Source of the DNA: Tribonema minus
Lineage: Eukaryota > Sar > Xanthophyceae > Tribonematales > Tribonemataceae
Length of the DNA: 64,000 nucleotides
NCBI GenBank assembly: GCA_017506865.1
Contig: JAFCMP010000082.1
Location: 186,001-250,000 of the forward strand
Reading direction: 5' to 3'
Position numbers and translations under genes: made by a program. Numbering within the stretch: the first letter of the stretch is position 1; every line of letters starts with the position of its first letter. Shown here one piece after another: positions 675 to 62,890 of the stretch. The notes below the pieces were generated by a model. The model ran no database searches, was not told the DNA's origin, and was given only the letters and a program-made list of their open reading frames with translations.

Positions 675-3600
675 GTACCCCATCGCAGATGTGCGCGCCG
701 CACTGGAGGGGCTGACGGCGGACAAGGTCGCGGAGGTCGCGCGTGGCGTGTTCTCGCGCTGCTTTGGGGTGTCACTGCTGCAAGGTAGGTTATGCCGTTG
801 GTGGTCGTGCCGTTGCCTCTATCGTTAGTGGGTGCTGCCAGACGACGCTGTTGCAGGTTGCGCCGCTGCCTCTTGGAACACGACCCTTGAACAGAGAAAA
901 CGATGAGTGTCATCAGTACGTGACGGCATGTTTATGTCCATGCATTACGCATTTCAACTGCTTCGCGCACTGCCTGGGGTGATACAGCTGCAAGGAGATA
1001 TGTCGATGTGTTGCTGCTTAAACCTTCCGACCGGTGCAGCACCTTGTGGGAAACCATCCTGCTGATGTGATACTGAACCTTCGACCGGTGCAGCACCTTG
1101 TGGAAAACCATCCTGCTGATGTGATACTGAACTCAACGTAAACTTCTACTCGGCGATGTTGAGCCCAAATGCTGACATCCGCGCCACCGCCTCATCAGTT
1201 TTACTGCGTCCAACATCTCTGCTGATGCCTCACCAACTCCCCTGCTTGTCCGCTGCTGTTGCTTGTCCGCTGCTGTTGCCACCAGGCAACTTGCTGGAGC
1301 CAGACGTGAAGCGCTTCGTAACCTCCGTGGAGTCGGGGTTCCAGTTCGAGCCTCTGCCGAAGGCGGAGCGACCCGAGCGAAGAGTGGTGCAGGTGCCCCT
1401 GACGCCGAAGGGCGAGGGGTGCCTGCTGCGGCGGCCCGAGCCCAACAAGGACGCGGACAACAGCGCCGCCACCGTGAGTGTTAGGGTTAGGAGTAGGGTT
1501 AGGCGCCACTGTGGCGCCACTGTGAGTCTTAGGGTTAGGATAAGGGTTAGGCGTCACTGTGAGTCTTGGGGTTACTGTGGCGCCACTGTGAGTCTTAGGG
1601 TTAGGATAAGGGTCAGGCGCCACTGTGAGTCTTGGGGTGAGGAGTAGGGTTAGGGTTAGGGTTAGGCGCCATTGTGAGTCTTAGGGTTAGCATTAGGGTT
1701 AGGCGCCACTGTGGGTTGTAGGGTGAGGGTTAGGCGCCACTGTGAGTCTTGGGGTTAGGATTAGGGTTAGGCGCCACCGTGAGTCTTAGGGTTAGGATTA
1801 GGGTTAGGCGCCACTGTGGGTCTTAGGGTTAGATATTAGGGTTAGGCGCCACTGTAAGTAGCTGGCAGGCGGCGCTTTGCGGACTGGGCACGCGGCGGCG
1901 CTTACAGCAGTAATCTTTAGGGTTAGAGTTAGGGTTAGAGTTAACGTTAGGATCAGGGGTAGGGTCAAGATTAGGGTTAGTGGGTTATCCCTTAGGATGA
2001 GGGTCGATGTAGGTGTCAGGGCTGTGGTTGGGGTTAGGGTTAGGGTTAGGGTTGTTCCTGCATCTAACCGTAGGCGCTCGCATCCCAACTCTGCTGCTGC
2101 GAATGGCGCCGCAGAGGCTGACGCAAAAGGAGGGCACACATTGCAGCGGCACCTATCTGGGGCACGCGCGTGCGCGTTTCAGTGGACAATGGCAGCCATC
2201 CGTTGGCGAGAGCATGGACCAACTGACGCATGAAACTGAGCGGAGACCAAAGGACAGGAGTACGGGCAAGGGGGCCATGAGGGGTTAGGGTTGGGGTTAA
2301 CCGAATCCACTCTCCTCGCACCGCCCCCTCAAGTCACCCAAGCGCAGGCCTCATGCATTTTCTGACTAGCCTCAGCATTATCCGACGTTGCGTCTGCTGC
2401 GCTTCATAGAGGGTGAATGAGACACGTACGCTGCGCACCCGCCAGAAACGCGGACGTCCACGTAGGCATCGTTTGCGAGCATCGCCGGAAACCAGTGGTA
2501 AGCCATGCACAGGGGTCTCTGCGCATCATGGCGATGCCCTGCGTCTACCGGTGCAAGTTTAGCGCTTGGTGGGGCGCGGCGCTTGTAACCCTAACTCTTA
2601 TACTAACTCTAGCCCCTAACCCTCTAATTTAAAACTGCCGCGGCCGAAGCCCAGCGACGTCGCAGGCAGCCGCCCTAGATGCCTTCCGGCAGCAGTGATT
2701 GCAGGAATCGCCTGTGTGCACGCCGCTTCCAACTCGGTCATTTCATCTATGATCATAATTGCGCTGCAGCTGATCTTCCAGGACGGCACGCGCGGCCCTG
2801 GTCGAGCTCAAACTCTCCATACCCCTGCGACAAAGAAACGCCCTCTCCAGGTCCTTGCGCGCGCGCGCGCGCCTGCGGCCGACGAGCGCCGCTCCGCAGC
2901 TGCAGCGTCGCCGTCGCCGTCGCCGCCGCCGCGCGCGCGCCTCAGCTCACCTTCCAGGTCGGCAAGCGCCGGTTTGCAGTTGCAGCGCGCCATATGCTGA
3001 CGCGTGTGCCGCCGCCGCAGCCGCCGCCGTCGCCGCCGCCGCCGCCACCGCCGCGCTCTCTGCGCTCCACAGATTATTGTCTGACGCGTGCGCCGCACCG
3101 CTGCCGCCGCCGCCGTCGCGCTCCCTGCGCTCCGCAGCTCATCTTCCAGGTCGGCGGGCGCGACCCGGTGGAGCGCGTCCTGCTCGAGCTGCTGTGCGCG
3201 ACGGCCGAGGACGCCTTCTACGAGTCGCTGCGCACGCGCCAGCAGCTCGGCTACCTCGTCTTCAGCGGCGCGCGCCGCACCGAGGGCGTGAGCGCCGCCG
3301 TCTTCGCCGTGCAGAGCGGCGTGCGCGACCCCGCGGAGGTGGCGGCGCGCGTGCTCGAGTTTCTGCGCGGGTGGCGCGCGGCGCTGGCGCAGGCGCCCGT
3401 CGCGGCGTTCGCGGCCGGCCTCGCGGCGCAGCGCACGGAGCCCGACCAGCGGCTCGCGCAGGTGCGTGTGAGCGAGACTTGCGAAGACGTCAATTCGAAG
3501 TGATGGCCAGCGACAGTCTGTCGGTCGCAAGAGCACGTGCACGCCTAGGGTTAGTACCTGGCCCTATGTGAGCCGTCTGGGCTTTTTCGCGCCCGTGGTG

Positions 3601-5562
3601 AGAAGTCTGGGCTTTTTCGCGCCCGAGGCGAGAAGTAGAGTGATGACCAGCATGCCGTACGGGGCGGCGCGCGTCACTTTGTAGCGCGCGCACGAGCGAT
3701 CGCGGCCGGCCCCGCGGCGCAGCGCATGGGGCCGGACCAGCGGCTCGCGCAGGTGCGTTCATGCGAGCGAGACTCGAGAAGCGGACATGTGGGCAGGGCA
3801 AGTTGTTTGAAACGCTCTCGGATCGTCACGGACATGGCCTGGCGTTTGAAGATCGGGCACGCCGATGTCATTGAGGGCGATGGTCAGTGAGCGCTGCGAC
3901 GCTCTGTCGCGAGGGCAACGACATGCATGCGGTCCATGGCGCGCGCGAGCATCGCGGCGAGCCTCGTGACGCAGCGCACGGAGACGGATCCAAGGCTCGC
4001 GCAGGTGTGCATCGCGTCCACCACGACGGCGGGAGGTCGTGATGCACCTCGAATACTCCGGAAGTACTGCACTTTGAAGAGGAGCACATGAGCGCGTGCC
4101 ATGCATAGGTGCCACAGGACACAGATGCGGCCGGTGCCAAAGGTAGGATCGCAGAGAGTCTTCCAGTTGCGCGCACCTGGCAAACAGTATTGTACACTTA
4201 AAAGTACCTTCCTGTGGCGTGGCACGGCATCCACACTGCGACCTCACTACCGCGAGTTCACCCTATGTACCGCTGTTCGTTCCGTGTGCAGCATGCATGG
4301 GGTCGCGCAACATGCGCGCTCGGGCCCATTCACCAGAAAGGTTGCGCTGCAGGTGCAGTGTACCGCATCTGTACTGCTGCTGAACCACGTACTGCTGTGT
4401 GTACCATTGCTGCACCGCGCGAGCGCGCGCAGGAGGCGACGCGCAACTGGGACGAGATCATCGGCGGGGAGTTCAAGTTTGACCGCCGCGTGCGCGAGGC
4501 GCAGCTGCTGCAGAAGGTCACCACGGCTCAGCTGCTGGCGTTCTTTGACAAGTACATCGCGGAGGGCGGCGAGGGGCGGCGCTGCATCACCAGCCAGGTA
4601 TGTATGTATATGTATGTATATATAGCCCCAAGTGTGTGCATGTATGTACTTCAATGTGAAGTTTGTGACCTGTGAGACGCGGCGCGGAGGTCGGAGAGCG
4701 GCGGCGCTGAAGCGCCGGCGAGGTACGGCGAGAAGCGCTTTACGTGCATCCTAAGAACATCATAATGTTGTGATGCTTGAAAGCATGGTTCTCGCAGCGC
4801 TGCATCCCTCAACTTCAATTGAAAGTACTGAGCGTTGCTGCTGTGCTGAGCGCTGCTGCTGCAGCAGATTTCTGTGTGTGTGTTGGGTCTAGGGGGCAAC
4901 TGCCAACTGGTCCATCAGCTACGCATGTCGCAAACGTGCGTGCCCGAGGAATCCGTCCGACAAGGTCTGCAATCGCATACTTGGAAGTATTTGCTGAGTA
5001 TGACATGTGTTTCTTTGCGCACCACTGCATTATGCACCTCAATGCAAGAAGTCTCTTTTCACCATCTTCAGAGTACAACGGCAATCCGCGGGGCACCCTC
5101 TGACTGATGACACATGCCTGGCAGCAAATGAAGGTTAGGGTAAGGGATAGGCGAGGGTCAGGGTTAGGACGTACGGGACTGAGGTCATCTTACAGAATAA
5201 ACTGAATATATGACGGCTCTGACACCCATGACGGTACAAGCCGCACTTCAAGCAGCATTGAGCACTGCTGCGATGTGTCCCGCATGTAAAGTGCGCGCGG
5301 TCTCGCTGATGAGACACGCAGTGCAATGGCATCCTCACAGCTCCTCTCAGCGCATTCGCTTTCACTCAGTCGCGACAGGCATAACAGCGCCTCTGTGCCT
5401 ATATTTGACAACTGCTCTCAGGTGTGGTGCAAGCGGCACGCCGAGGCAGCGGGCGGCATAGACGCTGTTCCCGTCCCCGTTGGCGCCACTCTGATAGACG
5501 ACCCCGTGCTGTGGCGGCGACGGCAGCAACTGTATCCACCCATCGAGGGCAAACGCATTTGA
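675..5562 (+). CDS. insulin-degrading-enzyme-like M16 metallopeptidase, C-terminal exons (5' end outside window)
   Basis: Zinc peptidase of family M16 (insulysin/IDE), which cleaves short peptides inside a closed chamber. Exons: 675-784, 1286-1473, 3138-3461, 4433-4597, 5422-5562 (stop). All have GT donors and AG acceptors and the phases join without a break (308 residues). The third exon has the family signature LRTRQQLGY followed by FSGARR, matching the LRTxxQLGYIVFSGPRR region of animal and plant IDE, including the conserved Arg and Tyr of the non-catalytic half that contact substrate. The fourth exon (NWDEI, FKFDR) matches the IDE C-terminal segment WxEIxxxxYxFDR. The last ends in RRRQQLYPP, like plant and animal IDE tails. 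The HxxEH zinc site belongs to the N-terminal half and lies left of the window. Introns contain repeated copies of exon ends (listed separately). Assignment to IDE rather than nardilysin is probable, not certain. Confidence 0.86.
1023..1132. repeat. 55-bp tandem duplication in an IDE intron
   Basis: Two near-identical copies (about 1023-1077 and 1078-1132) of a unit containing CCGGTGCAGCACCTTGTGG and ending in GATGTGATACTGAAC. It lies in the intron between the first two recognised IDE exons and has no coding sign. Confidence 0.85.
1474..2060 (+). repeat. interstitial TTAGGG array with embedded splice-donor copies
   Basis: This intron begins GTGAGTGTTAGGGTTAGG directly after the exon end GCCGCCACC. 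The phrase GGCGCCACTGTGAGTCTTAGG (or a one- or two-base variant) then recurs about eleven times up to roughly 1860, every 30-50 bp, separated by TTAGGG-type hexamers. A purer but more degenerate TTAGGG block continues to about 2060. The array therefore amplifies the exon-intron junction together with telomere-type sequence. It is flanked by exons of one gene, so it is not a chromosome end. Confidence 0.85.
2770..2970 (+). pseudogene. two decayed acceptor-side copies of IDE exon 3138-3461
   Basis: The real exon starts after an acceptor with CTCATCTTCCAGGTCGGC (LIFQVGGRDP). Upstream, CTGATCTTCCAGGACGGC (2770, LIFQDGTRGP) and CTCACCTTCCAGGTCGGC (2946, LTFQVGKRRF) follow the same CAG acceptor. 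Spacings are 176 and 192 bp. Neither copy continues into the rest of the exon. They are potential decoy acceptors. Confidence 0.85.
3697..4004 (+). pseudogene. two decayed donor-side copies of IDE exon 3138-3461
   Basis: The exon end (about 3405-3461, GCGTTCGCGGCC to GGCTCGCGCAG followed by GTGCGT) is repeated at 3697-3752, with GTGCGT donor intact, and at about 3947-4004, more diverged, followed by GTGTGC. They lie in the intron before exon 4433-4597. Each retains only the last 50-60 bases of the exon plus a usable-looking donor. Confidence 0.85.
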
Positions 5563-5589
5563 CGGAAAGCTTCACCGTCACCAACAGAA

Positions 5590-6012
5590 GTGATTTTGTA
5601 TGCATGTTTAGGGCGCCGGCCGAGGCAGGCGGACTGCGGGTTTAGTAGACGTACATGCCGCGACCAAGAGGCCGCCAAGACTACCCACTATTCTGGTCAT
5701 TATGATCAGAATTGCTACAAACTTGCCACATTGGCAATAGGGTCATTTGGCAGCATCGGGGAGCAGGGGCGGAAGCTGCTGGAGGCTGTGGCGACGGAGT
5801 ATGCCAGCAGGATGTCAGTGCCCGGAGGAGCGCGCCCTAAAGCTCTCAAGGGCATCGCCCTGGCGCGCTTACGCTCGGCACTGTCGGCAGCGCTCCACAT
5901 GGCGTACTCTGGCCGTGTCATGACACACATGGCAGAATCCAGGGGGGGGGGGCACATGGAGGAGGACGTAGGGGAGGACCCCGAGATGCCATTTGGCGGC
6001 GGCGGCGTTTGA
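5590..6012 (+). mobile_element. retrotransposon ORF C-terminal fragment
   Basis: An open frame directly downstream of the IDE stop encodes a tail with FGSIGEQGRKLLEAVATEYA, then SVPGGARPKA and an Ala/Arg-rich helix, ending in PFGGGGV. It resembles the short C-terminal domain seen after the reverse transcriptase in algal non-LTR retrotransposons, recognised by general pattern only. No RT catalytic motif is present, so this is a 5'-truncated or dead copy. The element-like sequence probably starts near 5650. A G-run at 5941-5950 lies inside the frame. The 3' tail contains a GGGC...GCCC mini-hairpin and AATAAAAAG near 6112. Confidence 0.5.
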
Positions 6013-32700: not shown

Positions 32701-33834
32701 CCTGAATTGCACCCTAGGGCCCTTGAACTTCTCGTGGCCTAGTGATCGCACGAGGTACCACGCATAGCGAGCTACAGCGGTACAGATATATATCGATCTT
32801 GCACCAGCTATAATATATTATAGTACTCTCAGTAATACAAGTCCTCAAGTACACTCAGGCTGGCAGCTGGCTACTGGATACTAACTTAAGTAGCTGGCGC
32901 AGCAGTCACACATAGTCGCGTTCACTCTGAGTCACAGCGGCTGGGCCTCTCGGATGTTATCAGCGCTCAGGCCGACTGACAGAATCAACCATACATCATA
33001 CTTTTGTACTTACGTAGAGTTAGGAGCTTGTCAATCAGCTAGCAACACTTGCAGCATGTCACTTTAGTGAGCGCGATGTGAGAGCAAAATATGCGTGATC
33101 AATCAACCACTACAAGTTCCAGCATGGCATTGACGCAGAGCAGTCACAGTGCAAAGGACTAATATGGAAATGAACAATGCTGTGCTTCAATGGAGACAGA
33201 CTTGAGGGGCGGGAAGCATTGCTCCTTGAACGGACCTGAGCCAGATGCAAACATTGCCTCCACTAGTAGTACTAAAAGTATGCCAAACTTTCGCATGAGA
33301 CCCCCTCCCCCCCTCCATCCCCTTCCCTCCCCTCTTCTCCAACGCATCTAGCAGCGAACACCTATATTATGCGTAATGTGCAACGGTCAAGCTGCCAAAA
33401 AAATCAATGAAGATGCTCCAGTGCGCATGGCGCCTGCCGCCTTGCAGGCCTTGTTGTCCCCTCGGCCTTTCAATGGTCACCATGAACCCGTTAAACGGTT
33501 CAAATGGCGCCACCCCTCTCCACTCATCAAGCGAACGTCACTGGCGGTGAGAGCACGCTTGGCAGCCCTCCCTGCCAGCACAGCCAAGATTCAAAGGGCT
33601 CTAACGCAAGCTACGCCCTGACCTCCTCTGACAAAGTCTACGGCATGGAAATTAAACGGTTTTCGTCGCCGCGTTGGCTGCATCGAGACGGGCTTACTGG
33701 CGATGACTTGGGGATAGACTCCCCCCCAGCCTCGCAGCAGCACTGGTATCAAGGCATTGGGTAGCCAGTCAAACCAGTTGCTCGACGACAGTGATCAAGA
33801 ATTTATGTCACAGTGTAGCCAATCAAACCAAGTT
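29736..33834. other. gene-poor region with one GC-rich island
   Basis: No supported gene. A GC-rich island at about 30700-31520 has exon-like composition, but every frame is broken. One frame reads LRGLGVRGVGDLAAFTV, a stop, then FFRTPWDGDDN. It may be a dead gene. Two overlapping open frames at 33376-33621 and 33504-33764 lie just past the PreP stop codon and have no recognised domain. Confidence 0.4.
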
Positions 33835-36831: not shown

Positions 36832-36863
<32 letters not shown>

Positions 36864-48800: not shown

Positions 48801-51800
48801 CTTGATCTTTGCCAGCTTCGCCGCCTCTCGCTCCTCTGCGCCAGTCTCGGGCTTCAAGTCAACTGTCACCCTGCAGGCGTCATAATAGTTACAATGCAGG
48901 TGTCCCTATCAGCATGCAGCGCACGTTTAGCCTGCCAATCAAGTAGCAGCTTTTTGACCTCATATATCACAATCAAGACTTTGAGGCGGCAGCTTGTTTA
49001 TAGGTGTTCTGCTCCTTCTTCTGTGAGCATCCGTTTTTATAGCCTATTGGCGCTCGCCCGACCTCATATCTGCTACTGAAATTTGTGTGACCTTGAGGGC
49101 CTAGACTGCAAAAAAACAGGCGAGAGGGAAGTGCACCAACGCTAGTCTGAAGAGCGGAGATGTATGCATGTCAGCACGCAAAGTGCTCTAAATGCGGTGC
49201 GTGCGAAAAAATCACGACAGCTCCGCCTTCAGCAACATCAAGACTCCGTAAGTAGGCGGGCCGGGCAAACCTCTCTGGTGTCATGGGAGACAATAGAACA
49301 GGGCTGACTACATCAGCATGCGTAAGCGTGCCGGTGCATGCGCATGCAGAGCCGGCATCAGGCTTTCCTCGCCTTGCTTCCGGCTTGGAAGTCATTCATG
49401 TTAAAGAGTTACCCTGCACGTGCCGAATCATTGTGGCAGAGGTGTGGCACCGCAAGTGCAGAGTGACAAATTGTTGCATGCTATGTGCACCGCACCGCAG
49501 TCATACAGACATACACGCGGTGCTGCCTAGCGATGACGCGCAGTGCGGAGTGTGTTGGGGTTGAAGTGACATCATGCAAGTATAAAGTCCAGCTACAGGC
49601 GCAAACGCATTGTGACAGAAGGGTTGCTGTGAGCAGGCAGAGTGCGTAGGGTCTCAAGCAGTATTGCGTTGTGCCCAAATGCGCCAATCAGGCATAAACA
49701 CATATTTCTATGATACTTAGGCCATCTATGTAGTCAATGTATATACCGCATATGTGCGCAGCATTGAGTACGTCTGCCAAGCCAGGTCATGCCCGTGTAC
49801 GTGGGCAGATAAGCTCCGCACAACGCTATCAGCTGTGCTGGGATATCACACTGCAGATGTGTGAGCAGCAGACTGAGTGCGAAATGGTAGGTTCTTACTG
49901 GCTACAGTCACAAACAGCCAAAATCGCTACCTCTTCCATGACTCTCAAGGACAAGCATCTGGACATGGCTACCCATTGGCGACTGATCGCACAGAGTCTG
50001 GCAGCGCCGCCGCGGACGGTGCCTCCTACATATACTTTGAAGTATGCTTGTACTTCGCAGTAGTAAATTACAAAAGGCTGCAAAGCAGATCGGTTGCTTT
50101 GGAGTGAAAACAGCGAAGGTTATTGGTGGCGCTGCTTACACAATGCCATGCCTGAGCAAGAAAATCATGGGGCGCGCTGCACTGCAGGGCATCCCCGCTC
50201 TGCGCACATCTTGAGGTTTGAGCACTAAGTCTTGCACAATCTGCAAGGGTTCTCCAGCAACGACATGCTTTAGCGATGGTATGAAGAACCTTGCAGGCGT
50301 GTTTCAGAGGACATTGAGCGAGTAGCCCACTCCTTGCAAATTCTCAAATACACATTGGTTCCTTCTAGACGTTATCACCAAAGTGGCTCTGCATGGCTTA
50401 CCTGTGCGTGTTCTTGATGAAGTACTTGGTGACTAGCTGCTGGAAAACGGCCTGAGACTGTCCCTGTGTGAACTCTTTGGTGATCTCGGAGAAGGCGTCC
50501 GCAAGGTGCAGATTCAGCGTCGGGTCCCTGCATGCAGCCAGGCATGTGCAACAGCGATGCATTCAGTTCTTCAAGTTGGCGCAATAAGGGTGGAGCACAA
50601 GTCTGAGCAGCCTCGAGACGATTGCGGACCGCCATGCATGTGAACAGCAATGCGTTCAGCTCATGACATATTCAGGGTGGAGCAAGTGTCTGAGAAGCCC
50701 TTGGAGAAGTACTGGAGGGGTTGGCGGCCCATAAATAACGATGGCACTGATCAGCTCAAGCGACACCTCCCCGGTTGCCTGTCCCTGTAGCGGGATCCAT
50801 AAGCATTGCTGGTAGCCAGGTATGTGAATTTGCTACAGCAACTTGAAAGCGTCTGGCTCTTGACGCATTCCGGGTGCTGCACATGTCTGAGCAGCCCTTG
50901 CGGGGAGTGTTGCAAGTCCATCTTGAAGAACATAGCTGATCCACTGAAGTTATTCTCCAGCAGCTAATGTCAACACATCAGCTGCATGCGCCCCGCGATG
51001 TTTGCGAAAGGCAGGAGATATGTGATGGGCAAGTCACATGCACAGGCAGGTTTGGGCAGCAACTTGTTGAACTCCTGAAAGTGTCATAATTATGCCTAAG
51101 TGGTAGAAAAAGCCCTTGCCCTGTTGGCTGTGATAAGCGGAGAATCGCTCCGCCTATGATGTGCTTCTATCCCAAACAACTTGAAGTAGCAAAGCAGACA
51201 ACGGATTGCATATGCACATGTAGGAGCCTACTGAAAGCGGCAGAGCGCGTGCGAGTGTGGCAGTGTATGAAAATGCACAATATCATCACTTCACACTTGC
51301 ATTTCATTTCTCACCACATAAGTGGTATGTGTTTCAATGCATGTCCGCATTGGTACACTTCACACTCAATGGCACAATGCTGACGTCCAGTTGCAGACAA
51401 TCTATCTAGTGGCTGCGCTACACAATGCCTGTGTACTTCCTAAACAGATAGAGCAAATGCGATATACCAAGACCTCAGGACCGCACTCATTTCCTCCCAT
51501 CAGAGAAGGACTGCAAGCGAGTCAAGCGAGTCGATTTACTTGGTGTGAAATTTGAAAATCAGAGGATCGTCGCTTACTAGTAGAAGCGTTATGATCCTCA
51601 ACGCCAATTTTCACTAGCAGCTGCTTGCCGCTGGTGCTTCAGCAACCCACCTGTCATGCACCCATTGGATCATGACCGTCTGCAGAAGGTCAAAGCCTCT
51701 GTTGTAATTACCCGAGGCTGGCGGGCTCAGGTAGGCAAACTGCACAGAGTTGATTGAAGCCTTGATGGCAGCTGCCTGGTGGGGATCGAAGATGGAGGAG

Positions 51801-54800
51801 ACTTGGGGGTTACTTTATGAAAGTTGTGATTACTTTACCATTGCCAATGCCAGTCATGATGATCGCAAAGCAAAGAGTATACAAAGTAGCCCCTTGACGC
51901 TGCTTTTTGATGTTTGCCTTTGGCAGAAAACATCAGTGACACGAAACAATTTGGCTCAGTTCAAGAGAGCTCCAAGACTGGCAATCTGGTATTACTCTCA
52001 AAGCGACTGAGAACATGATGCTGAAAGTCCCAAAGGGCCCGAGCTTGAGGTTTCAAGGGGAAAAATTCTTTTGTGGGGTTTCACCAAATATGCCAGCTCC
52101 CCGGGGGTGTTGTCCAGCGAAAGCCAGTGTAAGTTTGTAGAAGAAATGATGGAGGTGTGTGCGTCCAGGTGCTGACGAGACCTGGACGCACACATGCTTG
52201 CTTAGTACGGGCTTGATTGACTCCTTGCCAGCGATTGCTACAAACTTCAAGGCCCGGGGCGGCATCCTTTGCTTGTTGATCGCATTGCACGCATTCGTGT
52301 TGTGGCAGTCAGTGCCAATGCAGCACCCGCTGATGCGAGAAGGGTCATACTTCATTGACTCCCGCTTGAGGGGCAGACATCCTATGCTGATACACAATGT
52401 AGCTTTGTTGTCCTGTCAACAAATCCGATATATATGTATGTTATAAGTGTACTTCTATATATAATCATATATGTATGCACCATGCGGGCCCGCTGAGTGC
52501 AGCTGTGCACAAATTCCATCCACACGTGCTATGGACGAGCCTCCAGTCACACGGTGTACCGCGTAGACGCAAACGTTTCAATTGCATAGGCGACCCGGCC
52601 TCCCTTGGGCCTTTGTAGTACAAGTCCACAAGTACTGCAGACTTCGGAAGGAGATTGGTGCATCATTGCAATCAGTGTTGGGGGTGGAGCCGGCCTCGTC
52701 TCATCGCTTTCCATCACGATGCACATGTGCATATTAATCCACTGCTTTTGAGCCTGTATGCTCACATGACGATGTATCTTACGGGCGAATGGACCCAATG
52801 AGTCACGGTGCATTGGCCTATGGCAAGTGGCACCACCAGTTGTGGGTAACCGGAACTGTCGTAGGCAACCCTAACTAAGCCAGCCAGAAGAGCCACATTG
52901 GGTGTCCCAAGCGTGCTGCAACCGTTTGTTTGGGCAATGTCTTCAAACTTTGCAATGTTCTTTGTGCGTTGTGCGATGCCAGTCTCACACGATCCCTGTA
53001 CTTCATACATTGCCAGGTCATGCTTGAGGGCATCCTTGTTCCGTATGCCATGTGATGGCGGGCTCTGGAACAGCTTCGCCCATGACAGAAGCATGTCCGC
53101 ATTAATATATTGTGTAACTTGCAAGCTACTGCCGGAACAATCACCGACTCACCTTGAATCCGGTCTTTGCAATGGTTGTGAGGGTGTCCAAGATTAGTGT
53201 CTCGACGGCGTCGGCCTAGCAGCGTCCAGAGAGCAGGCATTTTGTTTCTCAGATGAGCGGGGTGCAAGGCGAATGCTGTGTGAAAGGAAGGGATGCCTGC
53301 TTGCAGCATCGTGGTTCCCAAGGTCACCAACGGTTGCACGAGGTTCAACATGCCCTGGATGCGGTGCACTTGAACATGGACAAACACATGGAGTTGTTTC
53401 AATCATAAATTCAACACCGCGACGGACCAAAGCAATGCTTGCTGAAAGAGGCTTGGAGCAGCGGTGTCTGTGTTACTACACATACCTCATTTATGAAAGT
53501 AAGACATGACATGAAGCATGAAGCAGTCAACACAAGCGTCTTTATACTGGCTGTCGCAGCACTAGGGCCTAGACTGAAACCGAGATTCACACCACAGCCA
53601 CTGCCGTTTCAAAACCCTTCGTGAGCGATATGCCAGAGCTTCATGTATGGTCCAGTCATGGAAGTGGGTAAATGGCTGACTTTGGAAGGTTTTCCGCCCA
53701 GGCTCATGGTGAAGCAACTTAAAGATACTCACTTTCAAATTGATACGTTGAAGTACTGTGCAGACCTGGAATGTGCAAGACCCACACAATGGCAACCATG
53801 CCAGCATGGTGCAACCATCATATGCCCTGCGTGGCATACGCCTCCAGAGTCGCTGCAAGTGCCATTGAAACAACCACACTGATTACCTTGGAAGGCTTCA
53901 CGCCCAGCAGGCCGATGGTAAAGATGCTCTGGCGCAGCCACGTCACGTACCCATAGCCAGTGGGCGCCGTTCCCAGCCCGCTGTCAGTCAGTGCCTTCAA
54001 CAGTGGCGCCGCACTGGATGAGGATCAGGGGGGAAGATGCCATCAGTGAGGGCTGGGTGTAAATTTGCGAAGGCCAACATCATGGCATTGATTCTTGAGG
54101 TGGAAGCTGAAGATTGGCAGCAAGCAGCAGGGCAGCAGCAGAAGCAGCAGAAGCAGCAGCAGCAGCAGCAAGCTGCACAGCTCGCGCCAGTGCCGGCACA
54201 TCACCAACCCATATCCAGACGCGCTGTACCAAAGCCGCAGTCGGGTAGCGCATTTACAAGCGGCGCCTCACAGCATGCCAGTTTAAGGGATAGGTGTCGG
54301 GAAGTAAGCTCATGCTCAGGCTCGGTGCCATAATACTGGTGCTGCTGCCCTTCTGTGCACTGCAGAACACAGGGAAATACACAGTAACTGTGCAGATTGT
54401 CTGGGGGTTGAATTTCACACGATGTAATACTGCTAGACATGACAGAAACCCCGTGGTGAGCAAGCTGTAAGAGGCAGAAAGAAAGGGCGCCGCACCTGGA
54501 GCCGATTAGGAGGTTCTCCAAGATGCTGAGCTCCAATGACTCCTTGAGAGAGAGCGTCCTGAAGTTCAGGACCCAGTTGACAGACACCACGTGCTCTGTA
54601 GTGCTCGCGTCGGCGACAGAGTATGTCGCCGGGTAGCGTGAGGGCTTTGGCAGCCGTTTCTGATCATGGCAATGTGCAAGCAGCACGTGAGGCTCTCAGT
54701 TATCTGTTACACGAGCATGCAGCTGCTTCAAGTTCTCACATTGCTAGCCCCAAGACATGACATTGTGTTGCTGCGAGCACCCCAGCAAATTGCGCAAGAG

Positions 54801-57800
54801 ATCAAGCCGAGAGTGAACACTATGCACATGATATCTAGCACATCGGTGTGCTTTGCATCTGAGATTGGCGCAAGATGTAACTCAACGGTAAACCGGTGTA
54901 AAGTTTGGGAAGCTACCATGTCTTTCCAGCGCTCCAGCAGTTCCTGGCCGCATGCGTGACAATGAAAAGGTGTGTGACATGCAGAACCAGCAACGCGGCG
55001 TAGCTCGGTGTTCTCCATTTTTGAAAAGGGGACAGTGAGCGGCGCATAGGTTTTGACAGTCGCGAGCGATGACAAGGGAAAAGTGAGGGGTGCGTGTTTG
55101 GAGGGCCGTTTCTGATCACCTGGACTCTGAAAAAGCCGGCACCACCATTGATTTAAGTCCTGTTAACAATTGGGGCTTCAACTTTGCGAACTCATGCCTT
55201 TCAAACTAGACTGTGGGCTCAATGGAAAGGGTTTTAGGCATTCGCATGCCAGCGATGTTCAGTTGCGCAGAAATAACTTATTGAATGTGAGGCAGCAGCT
55301 TTTGTAAACATAGACGCTCGCTGCCCTTTCAAAGCCCGTCAGACGACGTGAGTCATGGGGGGCAGGGGGGGGGGGGGGTAGAAATGGCTGCAGTCGGCTG
55401 ATGTATGGCAGCAGAATATATATACTTCCCAAAGTACTCCATAAGAGGTCCAGCTACGACAGCTGTAGCAACAGGCTGTAGCAACAGGCTGCGATCAACA
55501 AACAAGGGGCAGAATCAAGGGACCTTTGTTGCCAAAGATACGTAGTTTCGAGTTAACTTGTTACATTGGAATTGCAACATTTGCTGCACGGGCGGATGGG
55601 TCATACATCTTCAGATGTCTACGACAAGGGATGAATTTGGTGGGTGCGGCTGGCAAAGGAGTGGTGGGTGAGGGCGGTGGTATCAGGTTCAGCACGTTGC
55701 AGGTGCACCAAAACGCAGCTGAAAGGGCGTTCAAGAGCTGCACTCTCAGTTTCAGTGCACATGGCGCACTGTGGGCGCATCGTGAGTGGCAGTGCTGAAT
55801 GTTGAATGCGGCAGGCAGGCGGCTATAAGGCATGTGGAGGCTAATCGTCATGGGAAGTAGCACAGAGTGGGATGGCAGCTTTACAGTGTAGCACAGAGTG
55901 GCCCAGGGACGGCTTTAATGTAGGTTACTTACTGGTTTACATAATATCTTTAATGAATCATTTTGAACGGGGCGTAGCCGAAGTTGTGAGTGTATGGGCT
56001 GCCGGCTGGAGCTGGCCTACCGAACACGTGAGACCTGTCCATACTGAACACCCATGCCTCAAACGTTAAAAAGCTTGCACACAGAAGTCTTTTTGCCTAC
56101 TGTGGTTATGGTGGCACTGTTGACTTGTGGCCAGTGACTGCAGCAGCGGCAACCACGGTTATTGGTGGAAGGCACTTGCGGCTAACCATCCCTTGTCAAC
56201 TAGAGCTCTACAATCTTTTGATTCGTTTCTCATATGGCACCTGAAGTGTATGCTCTCGTAGTGCGACAGCAGTGTGTCGAGCTGTGGGTCGTGGAGATAT
56301 GTAAGCACACAACATGTCGTGAGCTGCTTCATACTAGAATTTCACTGCCCAACCAGCGAGGCAGATCATGCAAATCACCAAACCGAGCGGACCTGCACAC
56401 ATGTACGCGCCTGCACTTCAGCAGTGTAAGCTGTGCGACGGGTGCCGCTGCTGACATCTGGAGCAAGATTTGTCTTTTGAAATACTGCGCTGCCATATTG
56501 GTGCCGCACTGCACGTCAGCAGACGTGACACACCGTCAAGAACGAGGCTCAACAAACGCGATGCGCAAGGTTTACCTGAAGCTGGGTTGCTGTTGTTGAC
56601 ACGTCGACGTCCCTCTTGTCATACGCGCTGAAGTACTGCACCGAGGCGACGTCAGCAGCGAGCAGCGACCGAGTGAGACTGATTGACAAAGACCTACATT
56701 CGCTGGAGGGGGGCCGCCCTTCATGCGAACAATTGAGCATGCGTGCTCACTATGGAGTCTGTTTGTTAGGAATAGGACGCATGCATGGCGACTCTCAAGC
56801 GGTGCACACAGGCGATCAGCAGTGAGCGGGTGACGGCGGCAAGAGGCCCGTCGCCTATATTGACAGGCAGTGGGCCGCTGTACTACCCTCGTGGCTATCT
56901 CTGAGGGAAGAGGGCTCATACTACTTTAAAGAAGCATATTAAACAAGAAGAATGCAAGGCTCGCTTAGAAGTGACCAACAATATTATGGGGTGTCTGGGC
57001 GATACCGTCACATTCATTGACCACGATATTCAACAGCCGTTTCTCAAAGTGCCAGAGCGTGAAACGAGCTGCCCGCTCTACAAACTTTCACGCCCCCTTG
57101 ATGGTATCCAGGCGTCACATGTGATGCCATGCTGGCTTCTGCCGATTCAACGTCGCTGATCAACATGACCGCGTCAACCATATCATCCCACCGCTTCACC
57201 ATCTGGTTGTTTGCAAACATAGTCACGGCTGTTGGCAGGACGGTACTGGCGCCCATGGGAGTGCCACATGTACACCTTCAATTTTAGGTGACAAAATGCC
57301 AGAACAAGAATATCAGAGCCAGTGATTGGAATAACCTCGTCAACGATGTCCAGCCGTTTCATAACAGAATCGTTTCCATAGAAGAAGACGCGACTGTTGG
57401 CGGGGTGGTAGTAGCGCTTGTGAAAGTCCTGGATGTACTCGAAGGTGAGCGTTGGGATGACAGCAGGCTTGCCACCGGAGTCAAACCTGTACGCTGTGTC
57501 CGGAAAAAGTGCCTGTGGCAGGCGTGAAAAAGCAACATGAGCGCGCTGTGGGTTGGATGCTCCAATTCAGTGTGCTATTATTTGGTACCTGTATGTGCAA
57601 AGTATACTTCAGAGTTTACACTGTGGAGTCAGCTCTGATGTTTTACATACTTCTCGAAGTATGTGAAAAGCGGGCATCAGTGCACGAGCTGCCTCACTCA
57701 GGGCGGCTTGTAAATATATTGGGCTACAGCTGAGTGACGAGATGGCGGCAGGGGCACAGCCATAGCTGGACCTGTGAGCGTTAGCGCCAGCAACAGCAGC

Positions 57801-60800
57801 AGTGGCAGCCGCCGCAGCAGCAGCAGTGCCGCCAACCAGCACGTGAGATGAATTGGCTGCAGAAGGAGATATTTCTTGGTGCCTCGTGTTTTGTACTTAT
57901 ATTCACTTCCGCTTGAGGTATGAAAAATGCAACATATGCAAGTCTTGTGTGTGCGTTGACTGTGTGCTGATAAGCATTTGAGACTGCAACACATGCACTA
58001 TATACACTATTTTAACACCATTTACCACTACATCCGCAGCTTCAGTACTAATCTCTCAGATCAGCGTTCATAGACCTAAGCCGTTCTACATCGAAATATA
58101 TCTGCAAGTGAAACTGGCTTCACGAACATGGATGTCCGAGTCGGTGACTGCAACCTGAAATGCACATCACAGCCAGGTATATGCCCCTGCACCCCCACCG
58201 CCGGTGAACCAAGCCGCCACCGTTGACACACCTTCTACATGCCTGGGTGCCAGTGTGCGCCCAGGTGGTCAATGCAACGCATTTCGACCTGTACGATTGT
58301 GCGCCCAGGTGGTCAATGCAACGCATTTCGACCTGTACGATTGTCAGGTGGTCAATGCAGCGCATTTCGACCTGTACGATTGTCGTATAGGTCGAAATGC
58401 GCTGCATTGACCACCTGGGCGTACACAGATTGTCGTACAGGTCGAAGTGCGTTGCATTGACCACCTGGGCGCACACCAGCAGTGGTGATCTTCCCAGTCA
58501 TACTTGCCTAGTACGCACTCTGTGATGTGTGGTCTTCCTCGTACAGGCCCACGTACGCAACTAGGCATACAAAACCGAGCACCAATACAAAAAGCCCACC
58601 TCGCTTCGGAAGGCGTCACACGCTAAAGTGCCGACGCGTCTGGCCGGCCTGTGCCTGACCAGAAGTGAACGCAAGGCAGTCGCTGCAAACGCTTGGCACA
58701 AGACGTTCATGACTCGCATTGTTCCCCTGCTATAGCAAATCATCATGATGGTCTAAAAGCCCCCCCCCCCCCCTCTTCCTCTCATATAACCTATGATAGT
58801 ATAACACAATATCGCCTTCGGCTTCGCATGGCATGGCCTTTGCGGAAGTAGGCCAGGGGTACGCTGTATTAGACCGGGTTTGACACCAAGTGCATACCTG
58901 AAACGGAGGGTCTGAAGCAGAATTTAGGAGCTATGCTCAACATTTCAAGGTTGCAGGCTTCATGCCCGTCTTCCCGTTGTTTATTGGTAGTTGTTAAACC
59001 AATCTCAACACTTGAAGGAATCAAGCCAGGGTACTGACAGACTCTGTCCCACTAAGGAATCAAGCCAGAGTACTGACAGACTCTGTCCCACTTTCATGCC
59101 ATTCACAACAGCGCATGTGAGATCAGGGGTAATCATGCAGACCTCCCCCCCCCCATGGGCAGTCTGGCTACATTATTTACATGACCTGCCTTGTTTATGG
59201 TCCAGCACAAAAAGCATGCGCCGGCCAAAATCTGCCCATGTTCATTTTGCCAACGGAGGGGGGGCAGGAGGGGGAGAAGGAGGAGTGGGAGGAGGAGGAG
59301 GAGAAGAAGGAGAAGGACGAGGAGGAGGCAATGCATCCCCCCTTCTTTGTCACTTACTTCGTATTTTGGACTGTTGCTGTGATTAAGCAAGTATACATCA
59401 CACCCCGTGAATGTAGGGAGCCTCGTGTCTCAATCATAAAATATTGTATTCAGTCAGAATGGGGCATGTTCACCGTTGTTATCACCACTGATGGCCTTCG
59501 TACTACCTTCACAACTGTCTGAAACTTGGCTCGCCCTGTTGGCGGCCCAATACAAACCGCACAATTGCTGATTGTTCGTCCCGCTCTGTTTGTCTAACTG
59601 AGTTGGTTCACGGCCTTACGTGTCCAATGTATCACCACTGATAAGGACACCGTTTTCTTCCCTCAAATGGTTCTCTGATTCAAAAGTCCCCTTGAGTCTA
59701 ACAACATCATTTTTCGCTTTTAAAACCTATACCCATTTCCGTTGTGATCCACACATTGTCAAGTGCATACACCAGATTCTGTACTATTGGCATTTATGCA
59801 GTCGACCGGTCATAGGTCAACAATGGGTCCCCCTACGGTTTGCCGGCAATGCTAGTCATGCCTTCCACTTGCCTTCTTAGTTGTCGAGTACAGAACCGAC
59901 TCAGGATTGGAGTATTTGCCTTTCATTTCGCTCATCACGACCCCCTGATACGTCAGCGGGTCGCTGGCTTTCTCCAGCTCGTAGTGCCAGCCCTGCATGC
60001 ACAAGCGCATCATGATGGTGCAGGTAAGAAAGCACAGCAACTCTGCAACATGGACCGCATCACAGTGACCTGAACGGAATCATAGCCCCTTGGTGTGTCG
60101 CAAGGTTGCCTTCTCAAGCTTGTATTGCACATGCATATGCATGCAGCAGCACATGGTGCGGGCACATGATTACAGCAATTGTACTGCAAGCATGAAGCGC
60201 ATCACGGTTTGGTGACAGTTGGCGAAGTCACAGCCGTTTGTTGGAGAGTTGTTGAAAGCTTAGCCATACCTGATCCGGTTAAGGAGTCCCTTACTATGTG
60301 CGCGATTGCGGTTCCCGCGCAGTGCCAGCCCTGCAAGTGCACGCTGAACTAGTAGGAGTATCAGTACAGCAACCCAACAGGTTGCCTCAATCACGCGACA
60401 GCTCTAGTAAGGCTCTAGAGTATGAGTCATGGCTGGTGCAGGTGATGGCATCACAACTCCCGGATGAACGCTGTCTGTGAGGCCTTGGCGTTCTCCAGCG
60501 CGTACCACTAGCCCTGCATGCTGCTTCGGCATGGCCCAAAAACGCAACAAAAGTGCGGGAAAGTGCGGGAAGCTCTAGTACCCATTTCTTATCATCGTCA
60601 GCTACATGTGAGTATATCGTAGACGTCCACATCAGGGTCGGAACCCCCAGTAAAAAGCAGTTACTGTATGCCATGCAAAAGCGAGTGCATGCTTTGTGCA
60701 GCGAATCATGCTGCATAGTGCAATACGAAACGCATAGAGGTCTGAAGGCAACTATGCAGTCCAAGCAAACCAACTGAATGCGGGCATTCAGCGGGGCATT

Positions 60801-62890
60801 GACCCTGCAGCTCCCAACCCGTAGACACCCCTTCATTATGATGTACTTGGCTCTACTGGTGCACAGGTTCGTAACTAGACCGAGATCATGTACAGACCCC
60901 AAGCAAGCATGGCGTTGAGAGCTTCAACGATGCGTCATGATCTCACTCTGATTTGATCGGATGAGCGCCGACAGGCTATGAAAAAGGTAAGTACGTGTTG
61001 TTGATGAAGTTTACATCAAGCCACTGTTGTGCACACCTGATTGTTGGCAACATGCCTCAGTGAGAGCTGATCGGGTCATTTGTGTTATCAAAAATCAGCG
61101 TATTTACTGATAGTCGAACGAGCGCCGATGGCCATGAGAAAGGCAGCAAGCAACTGCGTACAACTTGCAGCTGCCGCCTCTTTCAGGCGGCGTCACACAC
61201 ACAAGCGCTGACATGGGTCTTACTCTAGGGACTCTGGAATCAGTACAACAAGTCTTGAAGGACACTGAGAACGCGCCGTGTGTACCTCGTCAATGTGTAG
61301 CTTAAGGCTGGTGCTTCAAATTGGAAGACTGCTTGCGCTGCGGCTGGTGAAAATTGATCAGAGCATGCCTACTGGGGGGTCTGATGCACGCATGACAAAG
61401 GTGCTTAAGCAGATGACTGCAGCTCATGCGCGTTTTTGCACTGACCTCCTGCTGCAGCCTGCGGGGGTCCTTAATGGCCAGTGGGTGGAGAACAGCGTCC
61501 AGGTAGACGTCCATGAGGTTGTAAAAATCCTGCGCCAGCCACAACGGGGGGGGGGGGGCGGGGCGGGGCAAGGCAAATTCGAGCGCATTGAGCGCTATGC
61601 TCACAGCGACTGTCCCAGGCGAGAAGGTTGTGCACGGTGAGGCTGGTACAAAGATGGGCAATGAACAAATTTGCAACAATACCACTGCAGTACCATTTGT
61701 AGCGTGATATCATCTTTGACAAAAGCAATGAGAAAGGCATGTACTTGCGGAGGGTGTCGGCGTGGTGCTCCAACATGTGCATTTGAGAGCCGTACAGTGC
61801 GAGGCACGGTACGCGCATGCATGGCTGTGGGCCAGGAAATGCTATATACTGCTGCAAGTTATTGGTACATGGTACATGGCATTTGCTCTTGAGTGGAAGC
61901 TTATGCTACCATGTATCCATGGAGGTGATGAGAGAACCGCGAAGATATACCATTACGCAATTATGGAGGTGCTGCACATTGGTAGCATCATGTGACTGGT
62001 GCTGGGAAGGCATCATGCACTGCTTCAGTACCTTGCATATGGCACATGCCTTTGTGCGGAACTTTCATGCCACCATATAGGTGATAAGAGAACCACAAAA
62101 TTTATGCCAGTACGCATTCAATTGTTGTGGTGCACATGGCAGCGTCATGTGACTGCTGCTGGAGTGCTGTCGATGCAGCGTGGGCGAAATCTGCATGTTG
62201 AACAACAACCTCTGCGCAAAATGCAGCTCACACATCTTTGTAAACAAGGACTTGCGGATACGAAACGCTCTCTCACTCACACAGACATGCCGACTTGAGC
62301 AACTGTGCTTGCATTTGTTTGATGTAGATGCCGCGCATGGATACGGGCAGATTGTGCTGATCTGTGGCATTATAAAAGCTGTACCAACACAATGGTGCGC
62401 TTGCAGATGATATTTCAGAGTACTCGTCAAGATGCCGATGAGGTCTGCTGAGCAAAATCGCGTGGTCAGCGACGGCAAAAATAAGCACACCCTGCATGTG
62501 TGTAACAACATAAATAAATCAAAAGAAGCATCATCAAGAGCCGCACAAAGCAATTGTCCGCATTGCGTTACAAAGCCGTGAAACTCTAAACCACACCCTG
62601 AAACCCTCACCCTATCCCTACACGTACTGCAGTACATATCATACAGGCACCGGCAATCGACCATCGCTTCAGTCAACGCATCACTGTCAGTGAGTCTAAG
62701 CCACAGTCGACCACACTGCAGTGCTTATGGGCCTGCATTACACCCCCTCCGCCATACATGTAAGCACTGTGGCACAACTGTAATGCCTGTCTGCCCAATC
62801 AAGAGTGCTCACCTTCAAGTTCAGGCTGGAGACCGGGTACATGGTGAAGTCGTCGTATGTCAACGCGTTCAGGAATGTCTGCAGGGAGCT
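33835..62890 (-). CDS. PREP: presequence protease (PreP), M16C zinc metallopeptidase, 23 exons, 5' end outside window
   Basis: PreP degrades free targeting peptides in mitochondria and plastids. Exons in transcription order: 62813-62890, 61446-61529, 59873-59992, 57336-57512, 56576-56635, 54496-54659, 53887-54013, 53153-53215, 51651-51775, 50402-50527, 48783-48870, 47776-47922, 46545-46623, 44824-44933, 43045-43145, 41709-41828, 40329-40558, 38810-38872, 37715-37806, 36942-37018, 35478-35665, 34554-34654, 33835-34029 (stop). Every phase matches; total 904 residues. Diagnostic motifs: SLQTFLNALTYDD, DFYNLMDVYLDAV, GWHYELE, GVVMSEMKG (its Glu matches the distal zinc ligand), DSGGKPAVIP with YYHPANSR, VSVNW, SGLG, VNYVGKG, VRIKTGAYG and SYRDPNVLSTLETYD. 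Conserved GG before AYG is TG here. The HxxEH zinc site and transit peptide lie beyond 64000. One donor is GC. Several introns contain pseudo-copies of neighbouring exon ends. Some short exons could have alternatives. Confidence 0.93.
34972..35033 (-). pseudogene. decayed donor-side copy of PreP exon 35478-35665
   Basis: On the minus strand this stretch reads LGTCDKAAAHRLGSHC, a copy of LETYDKAAAHLAGLTL at the end of exon 35478-35665. Plus-strand bases GCCCAGCCGGTGCGCAGCTG match the exon's GCCCAGCCAGGTGTGCAGCC. It lies about 505 bp downstream (in transcription) within the following intron. Confidence 0.85.
36831..36880. repeat. (CTG)n trinucleotide repeat in PreP intron
   Basis: About ten CTG units followed by interrupted CTGCCGCTG repeats. 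Short open frames reading poly-Ala across it are artefacts of the repeat. Confidence 0.9.
40023..40080 (-). pseudogene. decayed donor-side copy of PreP exon 40329-40558
   Basis: Minus strand reads RANMNVNISS before a GTAGGT donor. The true exon end reads RANMIVNIS plus G before the same GTAGGT. Spacing is about 306 bp. Confidence 0.85.
41170..41670 (-). pseudogene. three decayed donor-side copies of PreP exon 41709-41828
   Basis: The true exon ends MALVATKAHLDSQQRAMDLL. Minus-strand copies read MIALVVTEAHLNSRQRAPDL (about 41590-41655), MMALVPTKVR then a stop (about 41440-41500), and MELVAAACESAHDLAVKR (about 41185-41250). The plus-strand phrase CTGTCTGCCGCT(G)GCTCAGCAGG and variants mark each unit. 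Decay increases with distance from the real exon. Confidence 0.85.
42545..42935 (-). pseudogene. three decayed donor-side copies of PreP exon 43045-43145
   Basis: The true exon ends GARTDAMAYLLI before GTACGG. Minus-strand copies: REDALAYLLIRR before GTACAG (about 42878-42930), ANFEDAIAYLRNRE with donor lost (about 42670-42715), and ANSQDAMAYLLI before GTGCGG (42545-42585). Spacings are about 130-170 bp. Confidence 0.9.
48053..48094 (-). pseudogene. decayed acceptor-side copy of PreP exon 47776-47922
   Basis: After a CAG acceptor the minus strand reads QISNFMMKTRALSP, a copy of QINDIVAQTKALKD at the exon start. A weaker second candidate (QIIDERVEYH) lies at 48306-48351. Both are in the intron upstream of the true exon. 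Confidence 0.7.
50787..50845 (-). pseudogene. possible decayed copy of PreP exon 51651-51775
   Basis: Minus strand reads SKFTYLATSNAYGSRYRDRQ, resembling VQFAYLSPPASGNYNRGFDL from the middle of exon 51651-51775. No splice sites are retained. The resemblance is partial. Confidence 0.45.
53681..53716 (-). pseudogene. decayed donor-side copy of PreP exon 53887-54013
   Basis: Minus strand reads FTMSLGGKPSK before GTCAGC. The true exon ends FTIGLLGVKPSK before GTAATC. The copy is about 206 bp downstream in the following intron. Confidence 0.8.
54117..54175. repeat. (CAG)n-rich tract in PreP intron
   Basis: Interrupted CAG/AAG trinucleotide repeat. It lies in the intron between exons 54496-54659 and 53887-54013, so it is not coding in the gene model. 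Confidence 0.85.
54917..55111 (-). pseudogene. exon-length copy or alternative version of PreP exon 54496-54659
   Basis: After an identical GATCAG acceptor the minus strand starts KRPSKHAPL, against KRLPKPSRYP in the true exon, and stays open for 65 codons to a GTAGCT donor. The downstream sequence has little resemblance to the true exon beyond the start. The phases differ (0 to 0 here, 0 to 2 in the true exon), so it could not simply replace the true exon. Confidence 0.5.
57165..57262 (-). pseudogene. frameshifted copy of the PreP YYHPANSR exon end
   Basis: Minus strand reads RQYRPANSRDYV in one frame, then QMVKRWDDMVDA in another. The true exon has KRYYHPANSRVFF and SVMKRLDIVDE. The copy lies in the intron after exon 57336-57512 and is broken by an indel. 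Confidence 0.75.
58250..58475. repeat. three direct and two inverted copies of a 40-bp unit
   Basis: The unit CAGGTGGTCAATGCAACGCA, continuing to TTCGACCTGTACGATTGT, occurs three times head to tail (about 58261-58383) and then twice in reverse complement (about 58384-58425 and 58433-58475). The transcript of this PreP intron could fold into a long hairpin. Confidence 0.92.
59018..59092. repeat. 38-bp tandem duplication
   Basis: Two nearly identical units GGAATCAAGCCAG(G/A)GTACTG followed by ACAGACTCTGTCCCACT. In a PreP intron. Confidence 0.9.
60299..60513 (-). pseudogene. two decayed acceptor-side copies of PreP exon 59873-59992
   Basis: The true exon starts GWHYELEKAS after GCATGCAG. Minus-strand copies: GCATGCAG then G, stop, WYALENAKAS (high end 60513), and GCACTTGCAG then GWHC (high end 60330). 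Both lie in the upstream intron. Confidence 0.82.
61885..62165. repeat. degenerate tandem duplication in PreP intron
   Basis: A unit of about 165 bp with landmarks GGTGATGAGAGAACC, TACGCAATT and CATCATGTGACTGGTGCTGG (about 61915-62005) recurs diverged as GGTGATAAGAGAACC, TACGCATTC and CGTCATGTGACTGCTGCTGG (about 62080-62165). No exon homology is visible. Confidence 0.7.

What the first reader, a model, noticed from the sequence alone, without database searches (positions are those of the whole stretch)
675..62890. Introns of three genes carry extra copies of adjacent exon ends with splice sites
In the IDE-like, DUF2358 and PreP genes, at least a dozen introns contain one to eleven partial copies of the neighbouring exon's first or last 30-60 bases together with its acceptor or donor. 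Copies range from identical to badly decayed, and some have stops or frameshifts. Only junction-proximal parts are copied and rarely whole exons, which argues against ordinary exon shuffling. I infer a local mechanism that repeatedly duplicates DNA across exon-intron junctions. This lengthens introns and creates decoy splice sites. It would need splicing to discriminate true from decoy sites, or it supplies alternative isoforms.
Basis: partly seen in the sequence, partly recalled or inferred. Interest (0 to 1): 0.88.

Follow-up and report, generated by a model that had tools for sequence, protein, structure and literature searches.

The report
Exon-edge copies littering algal introns
In this yellow-green alga short pieces of DNA are copied side by side again and again, so introns fill with decaying duplicates of neighbouring exon edges and their splice signals; the duplication seems largely to ignore exon borders and the copies look mostly inert, but they make a natural test of how cells pick the right splice site.

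Summary
In four PreP paralogs (95 exons), 111 copies carry exon edge plus splice site: 64 exon-end+donor copies lie downstream, 44 exon-start+acceptor copies upstream, 3 on the wrong side; none is a whole exon. At score >=25, adjacent introns match in 43 of 182 pairs, non-adjacent ones in 0 of 1982. Kinesin loci: 21 to 0. A junction-targeted mechanism is not needed: local duplicates are equally frequent along introns, and exon-edge copies stay recognisable longer because the parent exon is conserved, though a donor-side excess among young copies remains (p=0.017). Copies evolve close to neutrally: 36 of 46 exon-part indels shift frame; third-position excess is odds ratio 1.47 in copies against 3.0-4.0 between real exons. 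Best reading: unusually active short tandem duplication that lengthens introns and leaves decoy splice sites, 19 of 56 decoy donors scoring at least as well as the real one. Why it is so active, and how splicing picks the exon-proximal site, is open.

The parts
33835..64000 (-). PreP (presequence protease, M16C) gene, 23 of 25 modelled exons within the window; the 5' exons lie beyond 64000
   Evidence: annotated Tribonema minus protein P0006 covers the 5' half
60449..60521 (-). copy of start+acceptor of PreP exon 59873-59992, 0.73 identity, stop in frame; aligns to a copy in paralog C511
57165..57273 (-). copy of end+donor of PreP exon 57336-57512, 0.63 identity; aligns to a copy in C511
54192..54277 (-). 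copy of start+acceptor of PreP exon 53887-54013, 0.69 identity
   Evidence: also seen at protein level
50608..50659 (-). copy of start+acceptor of PreP exon 50402-50527, 0.74 identity
48058..48097 (-). copy of start+acceptor of PreP exon 47776-47922, 0.72 identity
45988..46052 (-). weak copy of end+donor of PreP exon 46545-46623, 0.67 identity, E=7e-4
42524..42929 (-). three copies (42855-42929, 42652-42701, 42524-42571) of end+donor of PreP exon 43045-43142, identity 0.68/0.75/0.92; the first aligns to a C511 copy, the other two lie in intron sequence without a collinear C511 match
41160..41656 (-). four copies (41549-41656, 41401-41501, 41292-41368, 41160-41255) of end+donor of PreP exon 41709-41828, 0.66-0.70; three align to C511 copies
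40012..40079 (-). copy of end+donor of PreP exon 40329-40558, 0.81; in sequence without a collinear C511 match (the C511 intron has other copies of its own)
34971..35037 (-). copy of end+donor of PreP exon 35478-35665, 0.78; in sequence without a collinear C511 match
33761..33794 (-). copy of the end of the PreP coding sequence in the 3'UTR (54-bp offset), 0.79; aligns to a copy in C511; shows the process is not confined to introns
1515..1818 (+). five copies of end+donor (7-14 bp exon + donor) of IDE exon 1286-1473 inside a 37-bp tandem array with TTAGGG-like sequence
2761..2969 (+). two copies of start+acceptor of IDE exon 3138-3461
   Evidence: sequences printed
3696..4007 (+). two copies (3696-3767, 3952-4007) of end+donor of IDE exon 3138-3461, 0.88 and 0.82
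4683..4725 (+). copy of end+donor of IDE exon 4433-4597, 0.81
15170..15441 (+). two copies (15170-15259, 15351-15441) of end+donor of DUF2358 exon 14841-15034 in a 181-bp x3 tandem array; 45 exon bases + donor identical in all three, intron part diverged
16002..16437 (+). copies of start+acceptor of DUF2358 exon 16527-16571 (16002-16041, 0.75; and within 16318-16437, about 0.81)

Best explanation
Recurrent short local tandem duplication (units of a few tens to a few hundred bp) strikes Tribonema minus genes more or less uniformly. A duplication that straddles a splice junction keeps the gene intact only if the exon-proximal site goes on being used, so one copy always ends up inside the intron: downstream for donors, upstream for acceptors. 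Duplications of whole exons or exon interiors harm the protein and are removed by selection. The intronic copy then decays nearly neutrally, and exon-derived copies stay recognisable longest because their template, the real exon, is conserved. Shown: the copies, their adjacency, orientation and polarity, near-neutral decay, and a flat profile along introns. Inferred: continued origin since the C82/C511 split (young copies in sequence without a collinear match), the mutational mechanism (replication slippage or microhomology-mediated repair), and purging of whole-exon copies. Not shown: which sites are used in RNA.
For: Adjacent introns 43/182 pairs at score >=25, next-but-one 0/174, others 0/1808; reverse complement of adjacent introns 1/182. 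Polarity 108 to 3 and 21 to 0 in 30 kinesin loci. Nearest copies with identity >=0.80: in 12 of 23 the homology runs to within 12 bp of the copy, i.e. head-to-tail units, e.g. 117 bp = 66 exon + 51 intron in C35. Flat intron profile. Frame-shifting indels 36 of 46. Copies change at third codon positions only mildly more often than at first and second (143/770 against 281/2087 eligible sites, odds ratio 1.47; real exons between paralogs 3.0 and 4.0). Paralog comparison: of 21 C82 copies, 7 align to a called C511 copy, 9 align to C511 intron with no called copy, 5 are in sequence without a collinear match, including the 0.92 copy in an intron of 1216 against 828 bp. A 3'UTR copy shows no need for a splice junction.
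Against: 11 of 23 nearest copies have 47-238 bp of unmatched sequence before the copy, so not all are simple head-to-tail duplicates. Donor-side exon edges have copies more often than acceptor-side ones, 29/80 against 13/80, p=0.007, which a uniform process does not predict. Young donor-side copies (>=0.85) are more frequent at exon edges than in introns, 14/37 against 53/276, p=0.017. The third-position excess in copies is not zero (p=0.0009), and 121 of 418 changes are synonymous against 0.205 expected at the same sites; exon changes wrongly assigned to copies explain part of it (inference), some past coding constraint is not excluded. Between copies the exon part is more alike than the intron part (0.80 against 0.74), though in only 9 of 16 arrays. 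In DUF2358 the exon part plus donor is identical in three copies while the rest of the unit diverged. Copy columns are slightly more conserved between C82 and C511 than other intron columns, 603/952 against 7754/13206.
Confidence: 0.78

Rival explanations
1. A junction-targeted duplication mechanism (for example transcription- or splicing-coupled breakage) copies DNA across splice sites preferentially.
For: Junction queries had a copy in 61/180 against 86/448 interior tiles; donor-edge excess at >=0.85 identity p=0.017 in the young-repeat genes; donor/acceptor asymmetry p=0.007; spaced copies in 11 of 23.
Against: Purely intronic windows next to junctions are not enriched over deep ones (p>0.1 in all comparisons); in C35+C201 exon-edge and intron rates are equal over all identities; a 3'UTR copy exists with no junction.
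Confidence: 0.11
2. The copies are functional alternative exons or splice sites that diversify isoforms or regulate splicing.
For: Many keep GT/GC (52/56) or AG (29/41), and 19 donors and 8 acceptors score at least as well as the real site; four copies are annotated as in-frame exons in the C201 PreP protein P0003; residual third-position excess, odds ratio 1.47; DUF2358 array conservation.
Against: The third-position odds ratio is far below that of real exons (3.0-4.0); 36/46 exon-part indels shift frame; GT/AG retention (43/51, 31/38) is about what one-sided neutral decay predicts (inference).
Confidence: 0.07
3. The copies are remains of whole-exon duplications (mutually exclusive exons) that decayed.
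For: Copies contain exon sequence plus a splice site.
Against: 0 whole-exon copies among 146 hits, and copies of 0.90-0.97 identity already stop about 15-95 bp inside the exon, so truncation is not decay.
Confidence: 0.02
4. Assembly or sequencing artefact.
For: Local repeats are hard to assemble.
Against: Copies are mostly 5-37% diverged, found on several contigs, and 7 of 21 in C82 have matching copies in the paralogous introns on C511.
Confidence: 0.02

Closest known systems
Internal gene / tandem genomic duplication involving introns (Gao and Lynch 2009, seen only as a citation; Ma et al. 2016 PMC4974935, passages read)
   Same: Local direct duplication of segments that include exon and intron sequence and carry splice signals along; Ma et al. 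also mention an 83-bp duplication inside an intron.
   Different: There the point is creation of new introns; here the gene product appears unchanged, the copies look like inert decoys, and they recur at roughly a third of tested junctions (61/180) with up to six copies per exon edge in PreP and nine in one kinesin locus.
Rogers-type AGGT intron gain by exon duplication (Rogers 1989, Hellsten 2011; as described in PMC4974935 passages)
   Same: Tandem duplication brings splice sites.
   Different: By my derivation it predicts the downstream exon's start at the 5' end of the intron and the upstream exon's end at its 3' end; the observed polarity is the reverse.
Introners (PMC9860276, listing and abstract start only)
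   Same: Repeated sequences with splice signals in introns.
   Different: [quoted passage not shown] here each intron carries copies of its own neighbour exon only (0 of 1982 non-adjacent pairs within four genes).
Tandem exon duplication / mutually exclusive exons (PMC9013439, PMC6071210, listing and abstract start only)
   Same: Exon-derived copies next to the parent.
   Different: Partial, junction-anchored, nearly neutral; no whole exons found.

Membership tests
Local tandem genomic duplication | copies in direct orientation and adjacent to the source | tested here: met
   43/182 adjacent, 0/1982 non-adjacent, 1/182 inverted at score >=25
Local tandem genomic duplication | head-to-tail contiguity of units | tested here: inconclusive
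   12 of 23 nearest copies contiguous within 12 bp, 11 with 47-238 bp between
Local tandem genomic duplication | no dependence on splice junctions | tested here: inconclusive
   flat along introns and a 3'UTR copy speak for it; donor-edge excess p=0.017 at >=0.85 identity and donor/acceptor asymmetry p=0.007 speak against
Rogers-type intron gain | copies of the far exon's edge at the opposite intron end | tested here: not met
   only 3 of 111 splice-site copies lie on that side
Introners | same sequence inserted in unrelated introns | tested here: not met
   within four genes; not tested genome-wide
Tandem/mutually exclusive exons | whole exon duplicated | tested here: not met
   0 whole copies in 95 exons
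Tandem/mutually exclusive exons | copies under coding constraint | tested here: not met
   mostly frame-shifting indels, third-position odds ratio 1.47 against 3.0-4.0 in real exons; weak residual excess noted
Alternative splicing of copies | copies used in RNA | not testable with these tools
   no RNA-seq at hand

The most novel reading that the evidence does not exclude
Tribonema minus has a hyperactive local duplication process that is biased towards the donor (5') side of introns, perhaps coupled to transcription, and its spliceosome must pick the exon-proximal member from arrays of near-identical, equally strong splice sites by position or exon definition rather than by site sequence.
Probability: 0.15. 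Interest if true: 0.75.

Novelty: new variant of a known kind. Interest (0 to 1): 0.48.

Why it matters
It gives a natural library of splice-site choice: many introns in which the true donor or acceptor competes with copies of itself, some scoring as well or better. RNA-seq could measure directly how position, exon context and site strength decide. It also suggests introns growing by short duplications, with conserved exon edges serving as fossils that help date each event. In practice it misleads gene predictors: four of the 27 exons reconstructed for one annotated PreP protein are such copies.

Tried and rejected
Junction-targeted duplication: first favoured by the two-fold excess, then weakened because purely intronic windows show no gradient. 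Coding function of copies: suggested by C201 copies whose changes are all synonymous and by the third-position bias of unpolarised differences. The earlier 'even' claim is withdrawn and my confidence was lowered from 0.82 to 0.78. Conservation of the exon part between copies: striking in DUF2358 but held in only 9 of 16 arrays. Conservation of decoy splice dinucleotides: 43/51 GT and 31/38 AG kept, about what one-sided decay gives (inference). Telomere-like TTAGGG repeats as the driver: hexamers below or near expectation in PreP introns.

Full report
ORGANISM AND GENES. The window is contig C82:186001-250000 of a 158-Mb assembly. The PreP protein annotated for a 314,812-bp contig, the length of C82, is named Tribonema minus (P0006); three more T. 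minus PreP proteins match contigs C511, C201 and C35 (the contig given for P0003 is 1,141,321 bp, the held C201 1,140,000). The T. minus genome announcement is recalled and did not appear in the listings. IDE and PreP were confirmed by PDB sequence matches, DUF2358 by Pfam. Exon boundaries of the C35 and C201 genes, most of C511 and the 5' half of the window gene come from exact agreement between annotated protein and DNA; some C511 exons and the rest of the window gene were set by hand from homology, exon length and splice sites. IDE and DUF2358 boundaries are predictions from a splice-site matrix trained on PreP.

THE OBSERVATION. Local direct repeats in the window far exceed chance: 115 direct, 15 inverted, 0 in each of three shuffles at score >=20. 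In the four PreP genes each exon with 40 bp flanks was compared with its two neighbouring introns, or with 1.5 kb outside the gene at its ends. I left out as exons the four P0003 segments that repeat a neighbouring exon's edge. Of 146 matches at E<0.01, 64 are exon end plus donor downstream, 44 exon start plus acceptor upstream, 2 and 1 are the same on the wrong side, 20 are exon interior only and 15 flank only; none is a whole exon. The 108 include two copies in 3'UTRs (C82, C511) and four upstream of the first modelled C201 exon, whose own acceptor is not established. The aligned exon part has a median of 40 bp (99 copies with E<=1e-3). Thirty kinesin loci, of 132 matches found in the genome, give 11 upstream start+acceptor and 10 downstream end+donor copies and none on the wrong side, from 5 of the 30 loci; 9 interior and 1 flank-only matches make up the rest. 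Exon borders there are matrix predictions. Those 30 loci together with two PreP stretches hold 349 direct and 71 inverted local repeats in 125 kb.

LOCALITY. At score >=25 an exon with flanks matches an adjacent intron in 43 of 182 pairs, a next-but-one intron in 0 of 174 and any other intron of the gene in 0 of 1808; reverse-complement matches are 1, 0 and 0. Together with the polarity this fits tandem duplication and speaks against dispersed copying, which would land on either side. In 12 of 23 nearest copies with identity >=0.80 the duplicated intron part runs up to the copy itself; in 11 there are 47-238 bp of other sequence between. Those need later indels or spaced duplications.

IS THE JUNCTION SPECIAL? 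But a junction query is half conserved exon. Purely intronic 50-bp windows show no gradient: C35+C201 donor side 47/111 near and 62/165 far; acceptor side 30/111 and 46/165; C82+C511 donor side 9/129 and 28/224; acceptor side 7/129 and 17/224. Exon edges (last or first 50 bp) exceed introns clearly in the genes with old repeats (C82+C511 donor side 14/43 against 37/353); in C35+C201 the donor-side rates are 15/37 and 109/276. At identity >=0.85 a donor-side excess remains there (14/37 against 53/276, p=0.017). Exon sequence 50-150 bp from the junction is seldom copied on the donor side (9/69) and not at all on the acceptor side (0/66). Donor edges have copies more often than acceptor edges (29/80 against 13/80, p=0.007); this asymmetry is unexplained.

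DO THE COPIES DO ANYTHING? With the paralog's exon as reference, differences were assigned to the copy or to the exon (matches with E<=1e-4, exon-interior ones included; 89 differences could not be assigned). Raw counts for copies are 135/146/143 by codon position and for exons 16/24/78. Raw counts mislead because fewer third positions can be assigned, so one search counts per assignable site in 82 copies: copies changed at 135/1037, 146/1050 and 143/770 sites, an odds ratio of 1.47 for third against first and second positions (p=0.0009; 1.45 given the base), while real exons compared between paralogs give 4.03 (C35/C201) and 3.01 (C82/C511). Synonymous changes are 121 of 418 against 0.205 expected at those sites. 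Exon changes wrongly assigned to the copy must add to this excess, by how much I only estimate; weak or past constraint on some copies is not excluded. Indels in the exon part shift the frame in 36 of 46 cases. Between the C82 and C511 introns (21 intron pairs, well-aligned columns only) copy columns are 603/952 identical and other columns 7754/13206. Where the junction could be placed, decoy donors keep GT or GC in 52 of 56 and score at least as well as the real donor in 19; decoy acceptors keep AG in 29 of 41 and match or beat the real one in 8. So the copies are close to neutral in aggregate, yet many look usable; whether they are used needs RNA.

AGE. C82 and C511 introns align over 60% of their length, the chain averaging about 68% identity with exons included. 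Of 21 C82 copies, 7 align to a called C511 copy and have 0.63-0.79 identity to their exon; 9 align to C511 intron without a called copy (0.67-0.81, several of them weak); 5 fall in sequence without a collinear match (0.92, 0.81, 0.78, 0.75, 0.73). The intron with the 0.92 copy is 1216 bp against 828 in C511. Duplication was thus active before the paralogs split and, by inference, afterwards.

EXCEPTION. In DUF2358 a 181-bp unit is repeated three times; 45 exon bases plus the donor are identical in all three while the rest is much diverged. Local conversion or use of the copies are possible; other arrays do not show this consistently (exon part more alike in 9 of 16).

LITERATURE. The listings show no title or abstract start describing this in Tribonema or decoy exon-edge arrays as a genome-wide trait; that is limited to what this open-licence library returned. 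Tandem genomic duplication carrying splice signals is known (PMC4974935, passages).

VERDICT. Observation confirmed and extended; mechanism narrowed from junction-specific to general local duplication plus selection and unequal visibility, with a donor-side bias left open.

Noticed in passing
window 43045-44933 (-): An exon that is 208 bp in the C35 and C201 PreP paralogs is split by a 1.7-kb intron into 110+98 bp in C82; C511 also has the separate 98-bp exon: an intron gained or lost within the family.
   Followed up: partly
window 5798-6126 and 6530-6857: 329-bp inverted repeat, 98% identical, 0.4 kb apart.
   Followed up: no
window 58253-58476: Tandem and self-complementary 39-50-bp repeats inside a PreP intron.
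   Followed up: no
window 19770-20704 and 21567-22450: Tandem pair of about 0.75-kb segments, 71% identical, perhaps a duplicated gene.
   Followed up: no
window 7500-9336 (+): Sub-threshold match to the EsV-1-7 cysteine-rich motif (22.7 bits, cut-off 25) in the frame 8158-9336, with similar-looking motifs upstream.
   Followed up: partly
window 1513-2053 and 15126-15565: Degenerate TTAGGG-like arrays inside introns; the first resembles repeats near several contig ends.
   Followed up: partly
window 59872 (-): PreP exon 59873-59992 is followed by GCAAGT, a GC-type donor; 4 of 91 modelled donors in the four genes are GC.
   Followed up: no
window 33835-56500 (-), P0006 (C82 PreP): The deposited protein stops at 549 aa and includes a segment with no homology to the paralogs, while exons for the rest of the protein are present in the window: likely an annotation error.
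   Followed up: yes
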